A DNA stretch of 20,797 bases. Source: a virus. The DNA lies in IMG/VR virus record IMGVR_UViG_3300021363_000024, positions 1 through 20,797 of that record. One strand, written 5' to 3'. Made by a program: the position numbers and the translations under genes. The notes under the pieces were generated by a model, which was not told where the DNA came from, ran no database searches, and saw only the letters and a program-made list of their open reading frames with translations. This document shows, piece after piece, positions 8,917 through 20,797 of this stretch. Numbering within the stretch: position 1 is the stretch's first letter; each line of letters opens with the position of its first letter.

Positions 8917-10368
8917 GTGACTGTTCAATATCTCCACGGCATCGAGACGATCGAACTCGACAGCCCCTCAGGCCCGGTTGAAACCGTCAAGTCGAACGTG
9001 ATCGGCCTGATCGGTACCGCGCCGAACGCCGACCCGGACATCTTCCCGCTCAACACTCCGGTGCCGGTGTTCGCCGACGCGCTCAAGGCTGGTCAGCTCA
9101 AGAGCGACGGTACGCTGCTCGATGCGGTCGATGCGATCTACAGCCAGAAGTCGGCAGTGGTCGTGGTTGTCCGTGTCGCGGAAGGCAATGCCGGACCCAA
9201 CCAGCTGCACGAAGCTTGGTCCAACGCTGTCGGTTCGCCGAGCGGCAAGACCGGCATCTGGTCGATGCTCAAGTCGCGTCCGATGCTCAAGCTGGTCCCG
9301 AAGATTTTGGTGGCTCCCGGCATGACCAGCGGCCGGCCGACCAACGGCCTCGCCAACGTCAACGTCACCGAAGACGGTGCCGGATACGTCCTGTCTACCA
9401 CGACCGTCACCATCGGAGCTGCTCCGGCCGGCGGTCGCACTGCCAAGGCCGTCCCGCAGGTTGTTGGCGGCTCGCTGACCGGCATCATCATCACCGACCC
9501 CGGTTACGGCTACGTCGCAGTCCCGACCGTCACCATCGCTGGTGCGGGCGCGGGCGCAACTGCCACCGCTATCCTCGGCGGTGTCGCCAACCCGGTTGGC
9601 ATGGCGCTTTCCTCGATCGTCGACCGCCTCCGCGCCGTCGCGTTCGTTGACGGTCCCGGCACCAACTACGAAGACGCGATCGCGTACCGAAACGACTACG
9701 GCTCCCAGCGGGTCGCTGTCATCGACCCCGGCGTTCTGAGCTGGGACATCGCGAACTCGGTCTATGTCCAGAAGCCGGCCTCGGCCTACGCTGCTGGCAT
9801 CCAGGCGCGCGTCGACGAAGAAAAGGGCTTCTGGTACTCGTTCTCAAACGAGCTGATCCAGAACATCGGCGGTCCCGCCCGTCCGGTGGACTTCATGCCG
9901 AACGATCGCGCCTGCGAAGCGAACGTCCTCAACTCGAACCAGGTCACGACCATCATCCACGATGACGGTTTCCGGTTCTGGGGTCTGCGCGGCACGGGCA
10001 CTGACCCCCTCTGGGCTCAGCTGTCGGTCCGCCGCACCGCGGACATGGTGTACGAGAGCCTGGAGCGAGCCGAGCGTCACCGCTTGGACAAGCCGTTCAG
10101 CTTCCAGCTGCTCGCCGGCATCCAGGGCGATGTCAACACTTACCTCCGACTGCTCCGCGCTCGCGGCGCTCTGATCGGTGGTCAGTGCTGGATCGACCCG
10201 ACCCTCAACACCCCGGCGACCTTCGCCAACGGTGAGCTGTCGGTCGACTTCGATCTCGAGCCCCCGGCTTGCTTGGAGCATCTGCAGTTCCGCGCCCGCC
10301 GCAACCCGACCTACTACAACGACTTCGTCGAGGAGTTCACCCGGCGGCTCACCTCCGGCAACGGCTAA
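8917..10368 (+). CDS. FI: Contractile tail sheath protein, with inserted repeat domain
   Basis: Starts at GTG 8917 after a GGGAG ribosome site; 483 aa. Sheath features: N-terminal HGIETIELDSPSGPVETVKSNVIGLIGTAP, then LRAVAFVDGPGTNYEDAIAYRNDYGSQRVAVIDPGV, then PVDFMPND, GFRFWGLRGTGTDP and SVRRTADMVYESLERA, all typical of P2 FI-like sheaths. Residues ~146-225 are not usual sheath: two beta repeats, GAGYVLSTTTVTIG and PGYGYVAVPTVTIAGAGAGATATA, of a kind seen in adhesins, inserted after the LVAPGMTSG strand. They probably sit on the outer surface of the sheath. The sheath contracts around the tube to drive injection. Confidence 0.92.
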   Translation: MTVQYLHGIETIELDSPSGPVETVKSNVIGLIGTAPNADPDIFPLNTPVPVFADALKAGQLKSDGTLLDAVDAIYSQKSAVVVVVRVAEGNAGPNQLHEAWSNAVGSPSGKTGIWSMLKSRPMLKLVPKILVAPGMTSGRPTNGLANVNVTEDGAGYVLSTTTVTIGAAPAGGRTAKAVPQVVGGSLTGIIITDPGYGYVAVPTVTIAGAGAGATATAILGGVANPVGMALSSIVDRLRAVAFVDGPGTNYEDAIAYRNDYGSQRVAVIDPGVLSWDIANSVYVQKPASAYAAGIQARVDEEKGFWYSFSNELIQNIGGPARPVDFMPNDRACEANVLNSNQVTTIIHDDGFRFWGLRGTGTDPLWAQLSVRRTADMVYESLERAERHRLDKPFSFQLLAGIQGDVNTYLRLLRARGALIGGQCWIDPTLNTPATFANGELSVDFDLEPPACLEHLQFRARRNPTYYNDFVEEFTRRLTSGNG

Positions 10369-10469: not shown

Positions 10470-10766
10470 ATGAGCAACCTTCGCGACTCCAACATTTTCC
10501 AGGACTTCACCGTCTGGATCCGAGACATCGGCAAGATCGGTGAATGCCCCAACTTCCAGCCGCCCGAAATCAACATTCACACGGAAGAGTTCCGTGGCGG
10601 CGGTATGGACGGCACCGTCGAAATTCCGATGGGCGTCGAAAAGATCGAATTCGATTTCTCGCTCCACACCTGGGATGAGCAAGTCTGGCAGAACCTCGGC
10701 TACGGCCCCGGTTCGATCGACGTGCCCATCTGGTTCCGTGGGACTGCCCTCGAGCTGAGGTTATGA
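10470..10766 (+). pseudogene. FII: Tail tube protein, C-terminally truncated at a junction
   Basis: Starts at ATG 10470 after GGAGAGA. The first ~92 residues are a P2 FII-like tube: NIFQDFTVWIRDIGKIGECPNF, then EEFRGGGMDGTVEIPMGVEKIEFDFSLHTWD and LGYGPGSIDVPIWFRG. The family is about 165-175 residues, so roughly the last 75 are missing. After FRG (10731-10742) the frame reads TALELRL and stops. From 10739 on, another frame encodes helicase sequence. The truncated product would lack the strands that close the tube ring, so it is most likely non-functional. The N-terminal part looks undamaged, with normal codon use, so the break seems recent. Confidence 0.88.
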
Positions 10767-12121
10767 TGTCGTTCCGAGCGGCATCCGATTCAACCTATAT
10801 CGCCCAATTGGTCGGCCGAATGGTTCGTTCTCCATTGGCTCGCCGCATAATCGATGATGAGGTGTTGAATACGGTTGCGTTGTATTTGCCCCACTATGAT
10901 ACGAAGGGATTGGAGAGGATCGTTTCTAGGCTTTCCAAGCCCGATGAAGGAATGCCTCCGGTTGACGTTGAACTTAGTGAAGATGTCATCGAACTTAATA
11001 AGTCTGCGAACAGCGACGGCGCGTTCCAAGCGCTTGGTATGATTCCCTCCTATGTGGTGCCTCGAAAAAGAAAGGCGAGCCAAGTCCGGCGACTGATGAA
11101 ATTTGCTCGCCTCTTAACCAACGACGATTTAGATGGAAATGCTCTGTCGTCGGCAAAGTCAAAATTACTAGCCGTACTCAACAAGGAGTACGCTAGAAGC
11201 AAGAACGATACTCGCTTCAACGAGATTGTCGAAGGGAAGCGTCTAATTGAAATTGAAGCGGTAAATTGGGATGTTGGCTCGGACACAACGAGCGATGGAG
11301 AAACGATCAAGGTTGATATCGCGTCGGAAAATGTAGAAGATTTATTCGAGGCTTCCGGGCGGAAGCTTAACGAAGGTCTACATAAAGCATGGTGGCGTGC
11401 GCGCGTGTCGCGTTTTCCTGATGACCGTGAGAAGGCGAAACTAGAATTGTTTGCGCTTTGTGCCGATCCAGACGTAATGAGAAAAATCGAGAAAGAAGCC
11501 CAAGACACAGTCCAGAGCTGGCTTCAGAAATTTCGAACCGCTATCGCCAAACTGGATGAGAAAAGTAGAGCCGCTTACGACGAAATAAGAAATCTAGCGG
11601 CTAGCCCGGAACTGAGTCCGTTAGTGTTTCCTGCCACACTCCAAGGACACAGCGCCGACAAGACCTGGAAAAAGCATTTATACGTTAACGAAGCGAAAGT
11701 ATTCCCAGCGGAGTTCAACGAGCCAGAGAGGGAAATACTGACGCGGGAATTGGCTGCGAAAGATGTGGTTGCTTGGTTGCGAAACATTGACCGCAGACCT
11801 TGGGCGCTCTGCGTTCCATACGAGGTCGATGGAGAAATTCGCTCTATGTATCCCGACTTTTTAATCGTGAGGTCCGAGGGAGAGGGTCTCGTGGTGGACG
11901 TAATTGACCCACACACAATCAGCCTGGCAGACGCGCCCGCGAAAGCCGCCGGTCTCGCAAAGTTCGCATCTCAACACGCAGATAAATTCGGTAGGATCGA
12001 ACTTATTATGCTTGATGGAAACACTTCGAAGCGACTTGAGCTCACTGACGAGACGGTCAGGAACAAGGTCCGAGGCATCACGCTACCGAACCAGCTTCGC
12101 CAGCTTTTCGAAGCTTCCTAG
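10739..12121 (+). pseudogene. 3' fragment of an SF2 (DEAD/DEAH) helicase, restriction/defence type
   Basis: The first in-frame ATG is at 10763, but homology starts earlier: from 10739 the frame reads WDCPRAEVMMSFRAASDS, the motif V region of this helicase type (GWDCP-x-AEV-MM), then IAQLVGRMVRSPLARR, which holds motif VI (Q-x-x-G-R-x-x-R). The remaining ~400 residues are the family's C-terminal part, including a helical middle and, near the end, YPDFLIVRSEGEG-LVVDVIDPH, which could be a degenerate PD-(D/E)xK nuclease core. Motifs I-IV (ATP site and DEAx) are absent, so the gene is broken. Its base composition is markedly more AT-rich than the tail genes. If expressed from 10763 it would make a 452-aa protein without ATPase. 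Confidence 0.82.
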
Positions 12122-12248: not shown

Positions 12249-13391
12249 TCAACGGCAAAGGCTTCTTACCTTGGCCGTGATGCCCACGAAACGACGGCGC
12301 CACTCGTCGTCTTCTCCAGCATCTCCAAGGAATTTGGAAATCGGGCCGTTATTAGCCCCGCTTGCATGGGGCATTCCGGCGAGAATCCTATTGTTGGAAA
12401 TGGCCATTTTCGGACCAATGCGCGTTAGCACCTCCGAGACCATGTCTCCCATGGGGACGATCACTGCATCCGGGAACAGTGAGAACTCTTCCTCGAGCCA
12501 GTTCCTCGACCGATCGAACAAGAATGGCACGCCATTCATGTCAGGCGACCGGCTATAGTTCTCGCCATCGACGAAAGTCGGGTACCTGATCGCGGAGGTG
12601 AAATGGGCGCGATGGCTATCGACCTCCCAGAGGCTTGCCGTCGAGGCTATGCCTAGCAGTACATTCAGGCCCACGGCATCCATCAGCTTCACGAGGTTGG
12701 TCCTCATGGTCCCTGCAAAGCTCGCATGGACTTTCGCGCGCGCGAGGACCTCTGCTTCCGATAGACCAAACATCATCGCCCTGCGGGCCTCCTCGATGGC
12801 CTCGCGCATCTGTTGCTTTCCTGGCGTGATGCCAACGATGACGATATCCGCCCCGATACTCACGTGGTCGAATGGAGCGTAGGCAATGTCGAGACGCTTT
12901 GACTTGTGTACGTGGGTTCCCATAAGGAGCCTACGGGGATTGTCTATTTCGGCGGCGACCTCCGCCTGTGACATGGATGCGACAATCTGCAGGTATTCAG
13001 TCACTGTGCCAGCGACTGGTTCGGCCTCCGGCGCTACGCGAACAAACTGTACGGGCTTCCTTTCCACCATTCGGGCCAGAGGCCGTGCGGCGACAATCTT
13101 GGCGTGCGGAACGACACAGGGGGCGGGTTCGGCCTGCGGCGGATCGGCATCAATGATGCCTTTGGAAATCAGACGCCGGTCTCTAGTACCGCGGATAGAC
13201 ATCCAAACCGGCCAGCCTTTGCGGAGATATTCCTTCAGTTCCTCAATACTTGCAGCGACAACCCTGTTCGCGATGTGGTGTCGCTTTTTGCCGAGGTCGG
13301 GATCGGCTGCGCCATAGGCGTCGTCTTCGAAGACGTGAGGAACAAGGACTTCGCCAGTCTCAGGATTGATGCGGTACACGAGAACTCCCAA
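12249..13391 (-). CDS. Uracil-DNA-glycosylase-superfamily-like protein (start uncertain)
   Basis: The frame runs back through tRNA-Ser, so the true start is downstream of 13434. No ATG is available near there; TTG at 13391 (380 aa) and GTG at 13379 are candidates and neither has a clear ribosome site. An N-terminal domain (VYRINPETGEVLVPHVF ... LKEYLRKGWPVWMSI) is not recognised. After a Pro/Ala-rich linker, the C-terminal half has ADIVIVGITPGKQQ near residue 187, like the G-x-x-PG motif of UDG-fold proteins, followed by DAVIVPMGDMVSEVL, as in their second substrate-pocket strand. The fold call is tentative; catalytic activity is not shown. The gene converges on the helicase fragment. Its 5' end may have been cut at the tRNA. 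Confidence 0.6.
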   Translation of the reverse strand: MGVLVYRINPETGEVLVPHVFEDDAYGAADPDLGKKRHHIANRVVAASIEELKEYLRKGWPVWMSIRGTRDRRLISKGIIDADPPQAEPAPCVVPHAKIVAARPLARMVERKPVQFVRVAPEAEPVAGTVTEYLQIVASMSQAEVAAEIDNPRRLLMGTHVHKSKRLDIAYAPFDHVSIGADIVIVGITPGKQQMREAIEEARRAMMFGLSEAEVLARAKVHASFAGTMRTNLVKLMDAVGLNVLLGIASTASLWEVDSHRAHFTSAIRYPTFVDGENYSRSPDMNGVPFLFDRSRNWLEEEFSLFPDAVIVPMGDMVSEVLTRIGPKMAISNNRILAGMPHASGANNGPISKFLGDAGEDDEWRRRFVGITAKVRSLCR

Positions 13392-13433
13392 TGCCGAGGC
13401 AATCGGCTGCCATGTAGCGAGGAATTGGCATTC

Positions 13434-13523
13434 TGGCGGAGAGGGAGGGATTCGAACCCCCGATAGGCTTGCACCTATGCCGCATTTCGAGTGCGGTGCA
13501 TTCGACCACTCTGCCACCTCTCC
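13434..13523 (-). tRNA. tRNA-Ser (anticodon CGA)
   Basis: A complete cloverleaf on the minus strand, 90 nt with encoded CCA (13434-13436). Acceptor stem GGAGAGG / CCTCTCC, discriminator G, anticodon loop CTCGAAA flanked by CCGCA/TGCGG, a long class II variable arm, and a TTCGAAT T-loop within GGGGG/CCCTC. Reads UCG codons. The translated gene gives the familiar AEWSNAPHSK...VRIPPSPP artefact. Confidence 0.96.
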
Positions 13524-13764: not shown

Positions 13765-14073
13765 TCACTTCTTCTCTTCCAACCACTTCGGGTTCCAGTT
13801 GGCTGCCTCGTCGATCAGCTTCGGCTGCAGCACGTCGGCCTTCGTCTCAGCGGTGACCGCCTGAACCAGCAGGGCATCGGGCAGGATCGACAGACACGGA
13901 TGCTTCTTGTCCGGTCGCTCGCATCCCTCGGACGTCAGCTTCTCGCGGACGATGGACATCTGTCGGGTGGGTCCGAAGCGCTCGACGAGACGGGCGGTGT
14001 TCAGCCGACCCTCCCGATCGCACTTGGCGCATTTGACCCTCACGAAGGGCAGGGGCCAACGTTCAAGCTGCAT
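13765..14073 (-). CDS. Small zinc-ribbon-like phage protein
   Basis: A 102-aa protein whose ATG (14073) overlaps the end of the dCMP deaminase frame by 11 nt, so it is the last gene of the minus-strand operon. It begins MQLERWPLPFVRVKCAKCDREGRLNTARLVERFG: a C-x2-C pair, then a G-R/Y strand and a helix. A second pair appears as C-x8-C in GCERPDKKHPC. The four cysteines are likely to bind zinc, and similar short proteins are common in alphaproteobacterial prophages. The C-terminus (NWNPKWLEEKK) is basic. DNA or protein binding is possible; the function is unknown. Confidence 0.72.
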   Translation of the reverse strand: MQLERWPLPFVRVKCAKCDREGRLNTARLVERFGPTRQMSIVREKLTSEGCERPDKKHPCLSILPDALLVQAVTAETKADVLQPKLIDEAANWNPKWLEEKK

Positions 14074-14509
14074 CCTGTTTCTCCATGTCGATCAGCTCCC
14101 AGGCAACGCCGGCCTCGTCGTACATCTCCTGGGACAGCTTCAGAGAGTCGGCCCAGCGTTCCAGATCGAAGATCGGAGACACGATGCGCTTGATGCCGGC
14201 CTGAATGACGAGCTTCGCGCAGTTCGAGCACGAGAAGAATGTCGTGTAGATCGTGTAGCCGTGCAGCGGCTCGCGAGCCGTCAAGATGGCGTTGACCTCG
14301 GCGTGCGTCACGAGGGAATACTTGGTCAGACGGTCGTTGAGCCGTTCTTCCGTGTCGGCGATGCCCCGAGGGAAACCATTGAAACCCACCGATGCGACTG
14401 TGCGATCCGGGCGCACGATCACGGCCCCGACTTTCGTCGAGGGGTCCTTCGACCAGCTCGCGACTGTTTGTGCGAGGTTGAGAAATCTTAAATCTCACTT
14501 CACGTTCAC
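14063..14509 (-). pseudogene. dCMP deaminase with an in-frame TGA at codon 5
   Basis: From GTG 14509, which overlaps the upstream stop as GTGA, the frame reads MNVK-stop-DLRFLNLAQTVASW..., then SKDPSTKVGAV. Codon 5 is TGA (14497-14495), where family members have a conserved Trp (K-W-D-x-RFL). The rest is intact and typical: NGFPRG, HAEVNAI (zinc His 69 and catalytic Glu 71), and CSNCAK (zinc Cys 94 and 97), 148 codons in all. The enzyme turns dCMP into dUMP to feed dTTP synthesis. The only clear restart is GTG 14422 (119 aa), which would drop the first helix and KVGA strand and probably fail. Either a recent nonsense mutation, a sequencing error, or read-through. Confidence 0.88.
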
Positions 14510-15021
14510 TGTCGGTCCTTCGGAAAGTTGAGAGATGCAAACTCGCCATAATTCGCGAGCGCTGCTACGTCGTATGCGCGAGCTGCGTCTTCGGCGCTGT
14601 CGAAGCGACCGAGAGCTTTCCTCTTGCCGTTCAGTCCGATGCCCGCCTGGAATGTTCTGCGGTTCTTATCGTACGATACGCCCTTGAACCCGGTGGTGTT
14701 GTTTTTCCGGAGACTTTGGTTCCTATTGTTCTGGGCGACAGTCGCTGATCTGAGATTGCTGCGTCGATTGTCAGATCTATCGCGACTGCGATGATCACCC
14801 TGCGTTTCTCGACCATTGATGCCGAGGACGCGCCGGTGCAGCAGTTCACGATCACCATCTATGCGGATGTAGATGTACCCATCGTCCCGCATCACGATAG
14901 ATGTGGCGGAGAGTACGACGCCAATGTCGTCCTGGGAGATCAGGAACGGCAGATTAAACTGATCATGCATCGCCACTCCACGATCCAACAGATCACTGGG
15001 GAGGAGACCGAGGTCGACCAT
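14506..15021 (-). CDS. HNH endonuclease with AP2 DNA-binding domain
   Basis: ATG 15021 overlaps the upstream stop (TGATG); GTG 15024 is an alternative. 171 aa. Residues ~60-105 form the HNH nuclease core: ELLHRRVLG, then QGDHRSRDRSDNRRSNLRSATVAQNNRNQ (family: LHR...DH-x-n...DNR-x-NLR-x-AT-x-x-QN-x-N). Residues ~108-168 form an AP2 domain: TGFKGVSYDKNRRTFQAGI, GKRKALGRFDSAEDAARAYD and FASLNF. The pair occurs in phage homing-type nucleases, where AP2 gives DNA contact and HNH cuts. It sits in the operon between the AT-hook-like protein and dCMP deaminase, so it may be a free-standing homing endonuclease that has settled there. Confidence 0.9.
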   Translation of the reverse strand: MVDLGLLPSDLLDRGVAMHDQFNLPFLISQDDIGVVLSATSIVMRDDGYIYIRIDGDRELLHRRVLGINGRETQGDHRSRDRSDNRRSNLRSATVAQNNRNQSLRKNNTTGFKGVSYDKNRRTFQAGIGLNGKRKALGRFDSAEDAARAYDVAALANYGEFASLNFPKDRQ

Positions 15022-15758
15022 CACTTAGCCTCCTGGCCGGTCATGTGGTTGAAGCCATCGGAGCCGGTGAAGGGCGGGCGCACGGTGACCTTGCCTGCCG
15101 CGGAGAACTGCTCGATCTGGTCGAGAGTGTCCTTTGTCAGGACGGCCTTGCCGCCACCGAGCCGGTAGCGCTGCACGGCGCGAGCGCGCACCTGGGTCTT
15201 GATCGGCAGAGTCTCCATCAGCTGCTCGACTTCCGTCTGGCCGACCGGCAGGATCGGGAGAACCGGCTTGACGACGACCGCTTTGCTGACGACGGGCTTG
15301 ACGACGACCGCAATGTCCTTCGGTTTCGGCAGAAGGACGCCGCGCGCAGCTGCTGCCTGCTCGATCGAGAGGCCGAGACGCAGTTCTTCAGTGGTGCGGC
15401 GGAAGCGGGGTGCCTTGGCGGCGACAGGCTTCACCTTGGCGGCGAGGGGCGGGCGACCGAGCTTCTTCGGCTGCTGCATCGACAGTTCAACTGCCCGCAG
15501 CTCGATGCACTGCTCCTTGGTCAGGCCGCGCTGGATCTCTTTGCGGTTTCGCTTGAAGAAGCCCGGTCGCTTCGCGCGGGTCTGCTTTGCGATCGGCGCG
15601 GTCGAAGTTCCTATGTCAGTTGAGTGGCAATCAACTGGAGTTGGTAATAGGTCAGGTATGCTGACCGTTTTTTCAGCAGCTGCTTGTCGGGAAGATCCGG
15701 TGAATGCAGCAATTACGCGTGTCGCGATTGATAAAAACAAGAACGCCTCCGTTTGCAT
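15021..15758 (-). CDS. Basic, repeat-containing AT-hook-like protein
   Basis: Not a recognised family. 245 aa from ATG 15758, the only Met before residue ~94. Two related segments, KRPGFFKRNRKEIQRGLTKEQCIELR and APRFRRTTEELRLGLSIEQAAAARG, form a tandem motif (basic strand, E-E/I helix, GL-T/S-x-EQ). Between them KKLGRPPLAAK resembles an AT-hook. Pro/Val/Lys-rich linkers follow (VVVKPVVSKAVVVKPV). The N-terminal ~25 residues are hydrophobic and less convincing. The predicted promoter would start transcription about 3 nt before this ATG, so the message would be nearly leaderless. First gene of the operon; a DNA-binding role is inference. Confidence 0.65.
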   Translation of the reverse strand: MQTEAFLFLSIATRVIAAFTGSSRQAAAEKTVSIPDLLPTPVDCHSTDIGTSTAPIAKQTRAKRPGFFKRNRKEIQRGLTKEQCIELRAVELSMQQPKKLGRPPLAAKVKPVAAKAPRFRRTTEELRLGLSIEQAAAARGVLLPKPKDIAVVVKPVVSKAVVVKPVLPILPVGQTEVEQLMETLPIKTQVRARAVQRYRLGGGKAVLTKDTLDQIEQFSAAGKVTVRPPFTGSDGFNHMTGQEAK

Positions 15759-15950: not shown

Positions 15951-16367
15951 ATGCAAACCCCCTTCGAGTACCGATCCTACGAAGTCGCCAGCGAAGATGG
16001 CCGCTACTGCGCCAAATCCTTGGACGGGGAGAGCTGCGACCTTCAATCCAGATACCTCTTACGCGTGCTGCGCGCAGTTGACGTCCTCTGGACCTCGATC
16101 GAACTCTCTGTCGTCCCGACATGGTTCGCCACCTGGATGAACAACCCGACTCCATCAATCGATCTCGACGCTGCTATGGTCGATATGGGTGAAGCCGAAC
16201 ACCATCGCGAAACCCGGGACGACTTCCAGGATATGATTTCCATCCTGAAATTCCCGATCTCTCCGCTCGCTCTGGTTCGCAAGGCTGCAACGGCAGCTTC
16301 TGCCGCCGCGGTCTGCTTGATGACCGACGTCTCCTCCATGGGGGTCATCGAACTATTTGCGGCGTGA
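15951..16367 (+). CDS. Hypothetical protein, 138 aa
   Basis: Not recognised. ATG 15951 follows AAGGCGAG; the start itself is ATGCAAAC, another copy of the regional motif. Codon use is GC3-rich, like a real gene. The N-terminus MQTPFEYRSYEVASEDGRYCAKSLDG is polar; a Trp-rich helix (VLWTSIELSVVPTWFATWM) and an Ala-rich C-terminal stretch (KAATAASAAAVCLM) follow. No signal peptide is clear. It is alone on the plus strand, divergent from the early operon, and overlaps the end of the DUF4326-SLOG gene by 23 nt tail to tail. Placement opposite the early operon with shared repeats could suit a regulator, but no helix-turn-helix is visible. Confidence 0.6.
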   Translation: MQTPFEYRSYEVASEDGRYCAKSLDGESCDLQSRYLLRVLRAVDVLWTSIELSVVPTWFATWMNNPTPSIDLDAAMVDMGEAEHHRETRDDFQDMISILKFPISPLALVRKAATAASAAAVCLMTDVSSMGVIELFAA

Positions 16368-17004
16368 TCCCGTACTCAAGGCATCGCGTCGTCATATCCA
16401 GCGTCCCTTTGCCCATCGGCATGCTCGGAAAGCCAATGGCGCCATCCGGGCAACCATCCCTCAGCATTTGCTCATTTCGAAAAGGACCAGCCGCGGCATC
16501 GTAAAGCTTGCCGCGCCTGTTTCGTTTTACCACCGCACCGGGACGCTCTACGTTGTCCCAATCTGCCGGATAGGGATCAACGAAGATCCCACGGCTCTCA
16601 GCCCACAGGCGAGCCAGCCTGTCAGCTCCTGACGCCTCACCCTCGATGATCACTGTGATCGGATCGCGCTCATGGGCGGCGTCCAGGACGTCGTGCAGCC
16701 GTCTTCTATCGTCATAGGCGCGTCCGCCGTACACCAGCATGCGCCGGCCGAGCGCGGCCACAGCCTCGATCAGCGGATTGCCGTGACACGGAGCCGGGTA
16801 GCATGAGCACACGACCGACAGCCCGATCAGGGGACGAAGATCCAGGTGCGGCAGCTGCTCGCACTTGAAGCGCTCGATCGCTTCCAGGCGCGGCATCTCC
16901 GGCGTGATCGGAAACTTGTTTCCCCACGGCGTGCCTCGCCCGATGTAGACCGCACCCGGAGGCGCGTCCTTGTGGTAGCGGTTATAGACCCTCGGTTTCG
17001 CCAT
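16345..17004 (-). CDS. DUF4326-SLOG (DUF2493) fusion protein
   Basis: ATG 17004 is chosen for its GAGGAA ribosome site; an upstream ATG at 17043 overlaps the integrase end and is weaker. 219 aa. Residues 1-82: DUF4326, with VYNRYHKDAPPGAVYIGRGTPWGNKF, AIERF and the VCSCYPAPCHGNPLIE end (Cys-rich, C-x-C then CHG). Residues ~87-215: SLOG/YspA-type Rossmann domain, with MLVYGGRAYDDRRRLHDVLD, VIIEGEASGADRLARLWAE, YPADWD, FRNEQMLRDG and a GTLDM segment. SLOG domains bind nucleotides or nucleotide-derived ligands, and DUF4326 is frequent in phages, so a nucleotide-processing or sensing role is plausible. It lies 22 nt after the integrase on the same strand. Confidence 0.85.
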   Translation of the reverse strand: MAKPRVYNRYHKDAPPGAVYIGRGTPWGNKFPITPEMPRLEAIERFKCEQLPHLDLRPLIGLSVVCSCYPAPCHGNPLIEAVAALGRRMLVYGGRAYDDRRRLHDVLDAAHERDPITVIIEGEASGADRLARLWAESRGIFVDPYPADWDNVERPGAVVKRNRRGKLYDAAAGPFRNEQMLRDGCPDGAIGFPSMPMGKGTLDMTTRCLEYGITPQIVR

Positions 17005-17026
17005 CAGATGTTCCTCGACAGCCAGT

Positions 17027-18271
17027 TCATTTTTTCTTTCCAATAATCCGTCGCAGTTCGGTCCCCAGGATCTGGGTGACCGCCGTCTTCTCGTCGAGCA
17101 TGTCGTATTTGTCGTAGATGTCGGTGACGTCGCCCTCGATATGATCGAGCAACGCCTTCACGTCCGGTCGAGGTGCCTTGCCGCGTCGCGCCACGGTGGC
17201 CGCTGTCCGCCGCAGGTCGTGCGGAGTGAAATGCTCCATCTTCAGGAAGGTTCGAATACCGATCCGCTTCTCGCTCTTTTTGTCGTTAAGGGCGCGAGAG
17301 AGCGAGGCTCGGAGGATCGAGTCATTGTTGGCGCCGTACCGCGACGGGAAGACGACCTTCTGTTCCTTGCTCTTGATCGATTGGCTGATCACGGAGACCG
17401 CAAGGTCCGACAGCGGCACGATCACCTCCCGGCGCCCCTTCACCCGTTCCTTCGGCATGAGGTACTGCGGATCCTGCTTCTTGAAGTTCAGCAGTTCGTC
17501 GGTCCGCGCATAGGCCGCTTGGTAGGGGCGGACCATCGTGGTCAGGATCATCTTGAGGGCGAGGGCGGTCTGCCGATCGGCCGGCAACTCCGGATCGTCC
17601 AATCCCCACCAGAGAGTCTTGATCTCGTCGTCGTCGAGCACGCGATCCCGCGTGATCTCTTTGCCACCACGGCGAGCCAGTCCCTGGATCGGGTTCTTGG
17701 GGACGTATTTCCGGCCGGGCTGCTTCGCCCACTCGAACATCTTGTGGAGCACAGACTGTGTCCGGTTGGCGCTCACCGGCGCTCCGTCAGCAATCTCGTC
17801 CAGGACATCGGCGATGTCATCGTCCGTGACATCCTTGGCCAGCATCCACCCGAGGGCGGCGCGCACCGGCTTGAGGTAGCCCTCGTCATTCTTCCAGGAT
17901 GACTTGGTCGGGATGGCGTACTCGTCCATGTAACGCTGACACAGGTCTTCGAAGCTGATGTCCTCGCCCTTGGCGAACTGCCGGCGCTCCTTCCGCTTCT
18001 CGGCGCGCGGGTCCTTGTCCTCGGTGATCAGGGCGCGCTTGGCATCGGCATCCGTCCGGGCCTTGGCGTAGGTGAGGTCGGGGTATTTGCCGAGCGTCAC
18101 CGTGACGGTCTTGTTCATCAGGGGCGACCAATAGACGAACGCGAAGGATTTGCTTCCGCTCTTGGTCACGCGTAAAACCAACCCCTGACAGGAGCTGTCG
18201 ACGATACTAACCCGGTCTTTCCCGGGTGGACATTTCGCAGCTTTGATCGAGGTGTCTGAAAGTTTGGGCAT
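17027..18271 (-). CDS. int: Tyrosine-recombinase integrase (P4/DUF4102 type)
   Basis: ATG 18271 is preferred: the protein then begins MPKLSDTSIKAAK, the standard start of the DUF4102 arm-binding domain, with GGAT as ribosome site. A longer frame to 18418 adds 49 unlikely residues. 414 aa. Residues ~1-90 are arm-type DNA binding, ~105-200 core binding with SFEDLCQRYMDEY, and ~215-410 catalytic. Catalytic residues visible: Arg 248 (TTMVRPYQ), His 351 and Arg 354 (PHDLRRTAATVARRG), His 377 (LLDH) and Tyr 386 (TDIYDKYD). It inserts and excises the prophage at a tRNA 3' end, and such an end lies about 170 nt upstream of its start. Confidence 0.93.
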   Translation of the reverse strand: MPKLSDTSIKAAKCPPGKDRVSIVDSSCQGLVLRVTKSGSKSFAFVYWSPLMNKTVTVTLGKYPDLTYAKARTDADAKRALITEDKDPRAEKRKERRQFAKGEDISFEDLCQRYMDEYAIPTKSSWKNDEGYLKPVRAALGWMLAKDVTDDDIADVLDEIADGAPVSANRTQSVLHKMFEWAKQPGRKYVPKNPIQGLARRGGKEITRDRVLDDDEIKTLWWGLDDPELPADRQTALALKMILTTMVRPYQAAYARTDELLNFKKQDPQYLMPKERVKGRREVIVPLSDLAVSVISQSIKSKEQKVVFPSRYGANNDSILRASLSRALNDKKSEKRIGIRTFLKMEHFTPHDLRRTAATVARRGKAPRPDVKALLDHIEGDVTDIYDKYDMLDEKTAVTQILGTELRRIIGKKK

Positions 18272-18437
18272 TGAATATCCTTTGGGTGCGGATGCCATAT
18301 GCGGCCTTGTCCCGGGACAAGGAAATGGCTCAACACCCTGAAACGAGGGGAAACGGGTAGGAACGGAAAATGACTGATAAATAAGGAGAAGTGGTGTTTC
18401 AGGAGGTTTCAGGAACACACATAAGTGCTAGTTTTTC

Positions 18438-18630: not shown

Positions 18631-19470
18631 ATGACGACTGATCGCTTTGCCTACGAAGCTTCAAGATGGTCCGCGGGGCAACCGGACCAAGCCAAACGCT
18701 GGTTCGATGAACTTGAATTGACCGGTCCCCAGAACGTCCGGGCGAGGCTGGCGCAGACGGACGCTGGTTCTGCCGGATCGATTGCGATCGGGGCGATGCA
18801 AATGACGATCGGCTTCACGCAAGAGTGGCTAGCTTGGCACGATCGCCAGCAGGAGGCCGCGGAGGCCAAGCGGCACAAGAAGCACTGGCTCGACTGGGCA
18901 GGGTGGGTGGTTGCGGTGGTATCACTCGGCATTACTGCGTTCGCGACCTACCGCACCGTCCTTTTTCAACGCGACGACATTCGGCTTGTTATGGGTAATG
19001 CTCTGACGGTGACACGCGACAAGAAGGATTTGCTGCTAGCGCAGGATCAGGAGTTCACGTTCATCAATTCGGGAAACCGCCAAGCCGTCATCAGCGAAAT
19101 CTACGGCGAGTTGGTACTGGTCACCGATCCGAACGCCAAGTGCGATGGCCGCTTCGCAAAATCCATCATTCTCAATCCAACCCAAATAGTCCTGAAGCCG
19201 GGCGACATTCTGCCTCTGCGGGCAAAGGTGGTTCAGCAATATCCTTGGGAGAAAGACAAGGATGGGCTTCGTTTCCGCCAGACCACCGAAGAACAGGGTT
19301 CGCATTATCTCGTCTGCCTACACCTTTACGTCACCACGCCCGAAAGTTCATCCGTCAAGTCGGTGCAGCCACTCTATTCGGTCTCGCCCGGCGACGGACC
19401 GCCTTCAGAATTGTTCCGTAAGGATGAACCGCTGAACGTGATCCAACGGACGCGTTTGGGCTTTGGCTGA
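18631..19470 (+). CDS. One-pass membrane protein of unknown function
   Basis: 279 aa from ATG 18631, after an AGGA ribosome site. The N-terminal ~85 residues are soluble and charged, ending in a basic patch (KRHKKH). A single membrane segment lies at about 88-112 (WAGWVVAVVSLGITAFATY). The C-terminal ~165 residues form a beta-rich domain (FTFINSGNRQAVISEIYGELVLV ... ILKPGD-LPLRAKVV ... HYLVCLHLYVTTP), which reads like a periplasmic or cytoplasmic Ig-type sandwich. The NSGNRQAVISEI segment resembles proteins with an N-x-G-N-R strand seen in small membrane proteins of genomic islands. Outside the prophage, 57 nt before the HEPN-like gene. Function unknown. Confidence 0.75.
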   Translation: MTTDRFAYEASRWSAGQPDQAKRWFDELELTGPQNVRARLAQTDAGSAGSIAIGAMQMTIGFTQEWLAWHDRQQEAAEAKRHKKHWLDWAGWVVAVVSLGITAFATYRTVLFQRDDIRLVMGNALTVTRDKKDLLLAQDQEFTFINSGNRQAVISEIYGELVLVTDPNAKCDGRFAKSIILNPTQIVLKPGDILPLRAKVVQQYPWEKDKDGLRFRQTTEEQGSHYLVCLHLYVTTPESSSVKSVQPLYSVSPGDGPPSELFRKDEPLNVIQRTRLGFG

Positions 19471-19527
19471 CGTCCTTCAGGATGAACGGATGGAAATCGA
19501 ACGCCGCGTCTTCAGGGGCGCCACCGC

Positions 19528-19971
19528 ATGGGTCGCCTAAGACCAAAAGATAATCCGCGGCGCCGCTTCCGCGGCCCGCGGCTGCCCGTCGATCCGCTCA
19601 CGCTGACGCTGGCGCAGGCCGCCACACGACAGGTCGACGCGGCGATCGACGCCTTGGAACGCGGCAAGTTCGATATTGCCCTGACGCTCGCCGGCGCGGC
19701 CGAAGGGATGATAAAGCGCGAGGGCAACCATCTGTTTGCCGGTCTGCGCGACAATCCCCGCGCTAAAGAGAAGTTTGCCGCGAAGAAGAACTGGATTGTC
19801 ATGCTCAATCGAGAGCGCGACTGGCTGAAGCACGGCGGCGACGATGCGATGGAAATCGAATGCTTCGACGTCGCCATGATGATCGCAAGGGCGGCGTCTA
19901 AACTGGAGGTCTGGACCCCGAAAATGGAGGACTTCCGAACTTGGTTTATGGCCAATCTAGATAACTTCTGA
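19528..19971 (+). CDS. HEPN-like small protein
   Basis: A 147-aa helical protein. After a basic N-terminus (PRRRFRGPRLP), helices run from ~25 to 140. Residues ~35-62, QVDAAIDALERGKFDIALTLAGAAEGM, look like the first HEPN helices. NRERDWLKHGG at ~94-104 contains R97-x4-H102, the R-x4-6-H motif of HEPN RNases. The end (SKLEVWTPKMEDFRTWFMANLDNF) is a conserved-looking helix. HEPN proteins cut RNA in toxin-antitoxin and phage-defence systems, often with a partner. The preceding membrane protein, 57 nt upstream on the same strand, could be one. Family and activity are inferred from motif and helix pattern only. Confidence 0.7.
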   Translation: MGRLRPKDNPRRRFRGPRLPVDPLTLTLAQAATRQVDAAIDALERGKFDIALTLAGAAEGMIKREGNHLFAGLRDNPRAKEKFAAKKNWIVMLNRERDWLKHGGDDAMEIECFDVAMMIARAASKLEVWTPKMEDFRTWFMANLDNF

Positions 19972-20287
19972 TTGCTGGTAGGGTGCCGCCGCCCCGCCAG
20001 CACCGGCGCGCGATCGTATCGACGAAGCAACGCTTCCCAAGAGACCCGGGCCGGTAAGCGGTCCGCAAAACCCTCTCTGCGGTCCATTCGACATGCAGGA
20101 CCGTCTTGCCGAGAAACCGCACGTCAAGCGTCGACGTCCGGTCTTCGTCGTCGATCAATCGCGAAAGCGTCAAGCGGAATTCGTTGTGACGGACTTCCGA
20201 CAGGCGCCAGCGGTCGCCGGCGCGATCGACAGTGCAACGCCCTCCGCACCGACGAATGATGGCCCTGCGCCAGTGCGCTAACTGCCC
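19946..20287 (-). pseudogene. Possible degraded coding fragment
   Basis: The minus frame is open from 20287 to 19946 but has no ATG; a TTG at 20173 is possible. The C-terminal part (LTLSRLIDDEDRTSTLDVRFLGKTVLHVEW) looks like real protein. A neighbouring frame begins with ATG at 20327 (MTAMTNDDRTERMRAVSALAQGH), so a frameshift between them could explain both. It overlaps the end of the HEPN-like gene. The 19972-20409 interval holds no other supported gene. Confidence 0.25.
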
Positions 20288-20409
20288 TCATCCGTTCGGT
20301 GCGATCGTCGTTGGTCATCGCGGTCATAGTCTTGCCCCGACAGCAAAGCGGCGGCCGAAGCCGCCGCCGTTGTCGTCATAGTGCAGCGAAGGCGCCAGAT
20401 CGCGGCGGA

Positions 20410-20604
20410 TCAGGTTTTCGCTATCGGGATGACGGCTGCGGCTTGGCCGACGATCACGCATCGCGTCGTCCACGTGCCGTCTGAGCGATGCCCTTCGTTG
20501 ACGACGCGCAAGATGACATCCACAAAGTTAGTATCAGCACGTTTCGACCGTGGCCGACGCGTCCAAGGCCCTTTTATGATATTATCGGCATTAGCTTGCT
20601 TCAT
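20410..20604 (-). CDS. Small hypothetical protein, 64 aa
   Basis: ATG 20604 is preceded by GGGGAT about 5 nt upstream. The sequence begins MKQANADNIIKGPW, then a basic stretch (RRPRSKRA) and TNFVDVILRVVNEGHRSDGTW, which reads like a short beta-helix domain. No family is recognised. It is the only convincing frame near the contig's right end. Possible upstream sequence exists but the promoter is not clear. Confidence 0.45.
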   Translation of the reverse strand: MKQANADNIIKGPWTRRPRSKRADTNFVDVILRVVNEGHRSDGTWTTRCVIVGQAAAVIPIAKT

Positions 20605-20787
20605 GGCTTATCCCCATTGTTGCAGGTCAGGGCCGTCGGCAGCGCGAACTGCCGGCGGCCCGTTCAGCATAGGCAAAAGTGCGAGCGGGAAACAAGTCCG
20701 GGCCAATTCCCGGCAATGTACAGGAGAATTCCCGCCGATCGTTCCCGGATAACGGGCCGCGCGGGCTGTTGCTGAGATTGAATCTTT

Positions 20788-20797
20788 GGGGGGGGGG
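20788..20797 (+). other. Poly-G end of contig
   Basis: Ten consecutive G at the very end. Terminal poly-G runs are a known artefact of two-colour sequencing chemistry, so these bases are probably not genomic. Confidence 0.7.

What the first reader, a model, noticed from the sequence alone, without database searches (positions are those of the whole stretch)
10730..10766. Out-of-frame junction between a phage tail tube gene and an SF2 helicase
The tube frame follows FII-like homology to FRG (ends 10742), while the helicase frame follows its own homology from WDCPRAEV (starts 10739). The two regions overlap at TGGGACTGCC, so both parent sequences may share 10-15 nt there. This deletes the tube C-terminus, the tape measure and later tail genes, and the helicase ATPase half. 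A microhomology deletion inside a prophage carrying a defence cargo gene after its late operon fits well; an assembly chimera is the main alternative, given the poly-G contig end.
Basis: partly seen in the sequence, partly recalled or inferred. Interest (0 to 1): 0.65.

Follow-up and report, generated by a model that had tools for sequence, protein, structure and literature searches.

The report
Large deletion in a Bradyrhizobium-type phage
A phage of the Bradyrhizobium phage BDU-MI-1 group appears to have lost about 15 kb between the middle of its tail-tube gene and the middle of a restriction-enzyme gene it carried as defence cargo, which leaves a defective phage; only the raw reads could prove that the join is not a sequencing artefact.

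Summary
The junction is real in the sequence and sharp. Left of it, the tube gene matches 18 phage relatives until codon 91 of about 174 and then drops to chance. Right of it, the sequence is the C-terminal 460 residues of a type III Res-like helicase whose intact homologues are about 825-840 aa. Column comparison places the crossover between 10738 and 10742. The parents share 2-3 nt (at most 5), not the 10-15 nt proposed. The key new evidence is synteny. Genes on both sides (baseplate to sheath on the left; a 102-aa gene, deaminase, DUF4326/YAcAr, integrase on the right) are collinear with one phage group (BDU-MI-1, G002, G348, G380 and others). In relatives tube-to-deaminase-block is 17-33 kb; here it is 3 kb. 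Five of seven distinct relatives carry R-M, DISARM/BREX-like or Argonaute genes on the same strand in this interval, so Res is plausibly the phage's own hotspot cargo. One deletion of about 15 kb (11.7-12 kb late genes plus Mod and Res N-terminus) explains everything. A chimera between unrelated organisms is unlikely; a library chimera within this phage group cannot be excluded without reads. Ordinary in kind; the defence hotspot is the more interesting by-product.

The parts
8917..10368 (+). tail sheath gene (FI-like), intact, 483 aa
   Evidence: PHROG 23 tail sheath E=1e-98; 79-83% to the close relatives
10470..10741 (+). 5' half of major tail tube gene (FII-like), codons 1-91 of about 174
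   Evidence: PF04985; 80-91% to the closer relatives, intact there at 174-178 aa
10738..10742 (.). crossover interval; bases certainly common to both parents are 10740-10741 (GG), T10739 probably
   Evidence: column counts in 18 phage and 83 Res homologues
10742..10766 (+). out-of-frame tail of the tube ORF (TALELRL, stop TGA 10764-10766)
10739..12121 (+). 3' part of a type III restriction (Res-like) helicase gene, 460 codons; lacks 365 N-terminal residues with Walker A and DEAH
   Evidence: 61% to L029 and 57% to L030, intact 823/826 aa; REase_III models
12249..13433 (-). uracil-DNA-glycosylase-superfamily-like ORF (weak Pfam match), no homologue in the related phages
13434..13523 (-). tRNA-Ser(CGA)
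   Evidence: ARAGORN and Rfam RF00005
13765..14073 (-). conserved phage gene of unknown function (102 aa) that marks the right flank
   Evidence: 58-65% in BDU-MI-1, G001-G003, G005, G007, G008 and 61-65% in G348, G380
14063..14494 (-). dCMP/cytidine deaminase
   Evidence: PF00383; same position in relatives
16345..17043 (-). DUF4326 plus YAcAr gene
   Evidence: collinear in relatives
17027..18418 (-). tyrosine integrase
   Evidence: PF00589; 63% in G002, 50% in BDU-MI-1, collinear

Best explanation
The window is part of a temperate myophage of the Bradyrhizobium phage BDU-MI-1 group that carried a type III-like R-M pair (Mod-Res) in a cargo hotspot between its dNMP kinase gene and the convergent deaminase/integrase block. 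One deletion of about 15 kb joined codon 91 of the tube gene to the motif V region of res by end joining with 2-3 nt of overlap. It removed the tube C-terminus, tape measure, remaining tail genes, lysis genes, A1, dNMP kinase, and presumably mod and the ATPase half of res. The product cannot build a tail or restrict DNA: it is a recently defective phage genome or prophage. Shown: the junction, the missing genes, collinear flanks, defence genes at this site in relatives. Inferred: that mod was present, that one event did it, that it happened in a cell.
For: Sharp switch in homology at 10738-10742. Genes on both sides of the foreign block are collinear and co-oriented with the same phages: W, J, I, fibre, sheath and tube on the left; 102-aa gene, deaminase, g15951, DUF4326 and integrase on the right, in G002 and BDU-MI-1, with most of them in other relatives. 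Tube-to-deaminase block is 17-33 kb in relatives and 3 kb here. In relatives the space between dNMP kinase and the convergent block is 1-1.7 kb (BDU-MI-1, G002) or 6-18 kb with defence genes on the + strand: MmeI-type IIG (G008), PLD-SNF2 helicase plus a large methyltransferase-like ORF (G005), D12 MTase with DndB-like protein (G003), type II MTase plus SNF2 helicase (G001/G380, same prophage), short Argonaute plus DISARM/Dpd-like genes (G348). Res lies on that same strand. Intact homologue L029 has an adjacent type III Mod. The other ORFs near the junction are unbroken, so the event is young.
Against: No raw reads; the junction occurs in no other viral contig. No near-identical intact parent was found: best tube 91%, best Res 61% in an Acidobacteria MAG. 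The absence of other broken genes is also what a chimera would show. No phage of this group was seen with this Res.
Confidence: 0.66

Rival explanations
1. The junction is a library or assembly chimera: two pieces of this phage, or of two related phages in the same sample, were joined in vitro or in the assembly.
For: Viral record with a poly-G end, as in Illumina-type metagenome contigs; junction unique; 2-3 nt overlap is also typical of amplification chimeras, where 76.8% of junctions had 2 bp or more (PMC1855051).
Against: An overlap of at most 5 nt is far below the k-mer length of an assembler, so a chimeric molecule would be needed. Orientation and gene order are preserved, whereas only 15% of MDA chimeras are direct (PMC1855051). 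Flanks belong to one phage group and Res sits in its expected slot and strand, which a random join would rarely give.
Confidence: 0.28
2. The Res fragment was never part of an intact Mod-Res pair in this phage: an already truncated piece with the UDG-like gene and tRNA-Ser was inserted, replacing the late genes (replacement rather than simple deletion).
For: UDG-like gene and tRNA-Ser also lack counterparts at this place in the relatives examined, and several small genes usually left of the 102-aa gene are missing too.
Against: The breakpoint in Res coincides exactly with the breakpoint in tube; under prior truncation this would be a coincidence. Relatives carry intact-looking systems in this slot.
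Confidence: 0.05
3. The C-terminal Res fragment is a maintained, translated small protein (start ATG 10763 or 10766 after GAGG, overlapping the tube-frame stop).
For: Open frame of 452 codons; GAGG at 10757-10760 upstream of ATG.
Against: These codons are internal and conserved in the intact homologues; no second case of this start was found; it lacks both ATP-binding motifs.
Confidence: 0.01

Closest known systems
Bradyrhizobium phage BDU-MI-1 (KY940711)
   Same: Gene order from baseplate to tube and from the 102-aa gene and deaminase to integrase; sheath 83%, tube 87%, baseplate I 75%, integrase 50% identity
   Different: BDU-MI-1 has intact tube and all late genes, no Res, no UDG-like gene or tRNA-Ser at this place
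Type III restriction-modification (Mod-Res)
   Same: Res fragment is homologous to full-length ResIII/DEAD proteins next to a type III N6/N4 methyltransferase in L029
   Different: Window has only the C-terminal 460 residues and no Mod; the intact homologue has no sequence match to a solved structure
Defence hotspots of P2-like phages and P4 satellites (PMC9122126)
   Same: Variable defence cargo between two conserved phage genes
   Different: P2 site lies between gpQ and gpA near cos and holds short systems of about 1-5 kb; here the slot lies between dNMP kinase and the convergent early block and holds up to 17.6 kb including DISARM/BREX-like and Argonaute genes

Membership tests
Phage tail tube FII (PF04985) | N-terminal half homologous to the family | tested here: met
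   E=5e-16, profile 3-75; up to 91% identity to phages
Phage tail tube FII (PF04985) | complete tube protein of about 174 aa | tested here: not met
   stops at codon 91 plus 7 out-of-frame residues; C-terminus absent from window
Type III R-M Res subunit | SF2 helicase with Walker A and DEAH motifs | tested here: not met
   the 365 N-terminal residues of the homologue have no match in window
Type III R-M Res subunit | C-terminal homology to Res | tested here: met
   61% over 459 residues to the intact ResIII protein L029
Type III R-M Res subunit | adjacent Mod methyltransferase | tested here: not met
   no Mod match in window; present next to L029
BDU-MI-1-like phage group | collinear structural and early genes on both flanks | tested here: met
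Prophage (integrated) | attachment sites with host DNA on both sides | tested here: inconclusive
   integrase present; right end genes absent from phages, one with partial homologues in bacterial genomes; no att-like repeat in the part searched
Microhomology-mediated deletion | shared bases clearly beyond chance at the joint | tested here: not met
   2-3 nt, at most 5

The most novel reading that the evidence does not exclude
BDU-MI-1-like large temperate phages of Bradyrhizobium and relatives possess a dedicated slot between dNMP kinase and the convergent deaminase block that takes large multi-gene defence systems (IIG R-M, PLD-SNF2/DISARM-like, Argonaute, and here type III R-M), and this window is a copy in which a deletion reached from the tail operon into that cargo.
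Probability: 0.65. Interest if true: 0.42.

Novelty: new member of a known kind. Interest (0 to 1): 0.25.

Why it matters
Defective prophages formed by deletion are common, so the junction itself is ordinary. It matters for annotation: the tube and helicase ORFs are fragments and should not be read as a fusion or as a functional defence gene. The comparison it forced shows where this phage group keeps defence genes, a defined interval from which more systems can be collected.

Tried and rejected
A chimera of phage with an unrelated bacterial contig: rejected as likely, because genes right of the Res/UDG/tRNA block are collinear with the same phage group. Shared sequence of 10-15 nt: rejected by column counts. 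Independent copy of the junction: degenerate pattern scan of viral contigs gave 0. L006 looked like a second broken Res with the same edge; reading it showed continuous Res before WDCPRA and a break some 25 residues later, so it is unrelated. UDG-like and integrase protein scans of viral contigs found no relatives, although G002 in that collection holds a 63% integrase, so an empty scan there means little. A near-identical intact parent was sought in 399 genomes of one family for sheath and Res: sheath 82-83% in two genomes, Res at most 39%.

Full report
The window is a linear viral record of 20,797 bases that ends in nine G. ORFs, Pfam and PHROG matches show a myophage late region on the + strand (baseplate W, J, I, fibres, sheath, tube) to about 10.74 kb, and a mostly minus-strand block from 12.2 to 18.4 kb ending in a tyrosine integrase.

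Junction. The tube protein matches PF04985 over profile positions 3-75 of 165. In 22 related viral contigs the gene is intact at 173-178 aa, and the window follows them to FRG (codon 91) and then leaves. Base by base against 18 relatives, identity is high up to 10741 except for the codon 10731-10733 (ACN to TGG), and falls to chance level from 10743. On the other side, 83 homologues of the Res fragment are invariant for TGGGA at 10739-10743, and all have GG at 10736-10737 where the window has CC. The crossover therefore lies between 10738 and 10742. GG is certainly common, TGG probably, five bases at most. The suggested 10-15 nt are excluded, and 2-3 nt is within what random end joining gives.

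The right partner. The fragment is 61% identical to residues 366-823 of a Res protein in L029 and 57% to one in L030. L029 Res matches ResIII (E=2e-15) and lies directly after a type III methyltransferase. The fragment has lost Walker A (GSGKT) and DEAH and begins at the conserved WDCPRAEV, upstream of QLVGRMVR. No Mod and no Res N-terminus exist in the window.

Same phage on both sides. The integrase has a 63% homologue in record G002, whose tube lies 22 kb upstream in the same orientation. Fetching relatives and BDU-MI-1 and comparing all window genes shows that the 102-aa gene, deaminase, g15951, DUF4326 gene and integrase are collinear with this phage group, as are the left genes. Only Res, the UDG-like gene, tRNA-Ser and the two ORFs right of the integrase have no counterpart; the HNH/AP2 gene has only a weak local match, in G010. 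In relatives tube-to-deaminase block spans 17 to 33 kb; here it spans 3 kb. Every BDU-MI-1 gene from the chaperone to the adenine methyltransferase that was tested is missing from the window.

Why a restriction gene sits there. In relatives the interval between dNMP kinase and the convergent block measures 1.0 kb (G002), 1.7 kb (BDU-MI-1), about 6 kb (G001, apparently the same prophage as G380), 6.9 kb (G003), 10.5 kb (G008), 11.5 kb (G005) and about 17.6 kb (G348). The larger intervals hold, on the + strand, a type II methyltransferase with an SNF2 helicase; a D12 methyltransferase with a DndB-like protein; a full MmeI-type IIG enzyme with a DEAD helicase and a T5orf172 protein; a PLD-SNF2 helicase with a large methyltransferase-like ORF; and a short Argonaute pair plus Dpd/DISARM-like helicase and methyltransferase. 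Res in the window has the same strand and relative place. The simplest account is that the phage carried mod-res in this slot and lost one stretch: 11.7-12 kb from tube codon 91 to the end of dNMP kinase (from the relatives) plus about 3.2 kb of mod and res, about 15 kb in all. That mod was present and that one event did it are inferences.

Artefact or real. An assembler is not expected to join on five bases, so an artefact needs a chimeric molecule. Among amplification chimeras 85% are inverted and 15% direct (PMC1855051); here order and orientation are kept. A join between unrelated members of a community would hardly give collinear flanks and cargo in its usual slot. This favours a real deletion by perhaps two to one; reads are needed to decide. 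No other viral contig shows the junction. If real, it is young, since both truncated frames and their neighbours are free of stops.

Consequence. Without a complete tube, tape measure, tail completion and lysis genes, the genome cannot make tailed particles by itself. The Res fragment lacks its motor and its partner and should not be annotated as a defence gene. The integrase suggests a prophage, but host flanks were not proven.

Noticed in passing
L135:6709-14886; L139:1276-7293; L126:8110-11315; L119:8494-13936; L162:14466 to L163:9605: Relatives of BDU-MI-1 carry different defence genes (MmeI IIG, PLD-SNF2, DndB-like, Argonaute, Dpd/DISARM-like) between dNMP kinase and the convergent early block: a hotspot of up to 17.6 kb.
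   Followed up: partly
window 10731-10733: Codon ACN (Thr) of all 18 close relatives reads TGG (Trp) a few bases before the junction; may be divergence or error-prone repair next to the joint.
   Followed up: no
window 11850-11920 and L029-L108: The Res family has YPDF followed by a (V/I/A)D-x-x-(E/D)PH motif where type III Res enzymes would show a PD-(D/E)xK lysine; the catalytic site may differ (pattern count only).
   Followed up: partly
window 12249-13433: UDG-superfamily-like ORF with an N-terminal extension of about 145 residues; only its C-terminal part has homologues, on plasmids and in a few genomes.
   Followed up: partly
window 13434-13523: tRNA-Ser(CGA) inside the phage block; related phages have tRNA genes elsewhere but none here.
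   Followed up: partly
window 14506-15024: HNH plus AP2 domain homing-endonuclease-like ORF between deaminase and its neighbour; not seen at this place in relatives.
   Followed up: no
window 18631-20797: ORFs right of the integrase are absent from the phages, but 18631-19470 has partial homologues in nine bacterial genomes; possibly host flank.
   Followed up: partly
L006:1120-1450: Another viral record holds a res frame that breaks off some 25 residues after WDCPRAEV, at a different place.
   Followed up: partly
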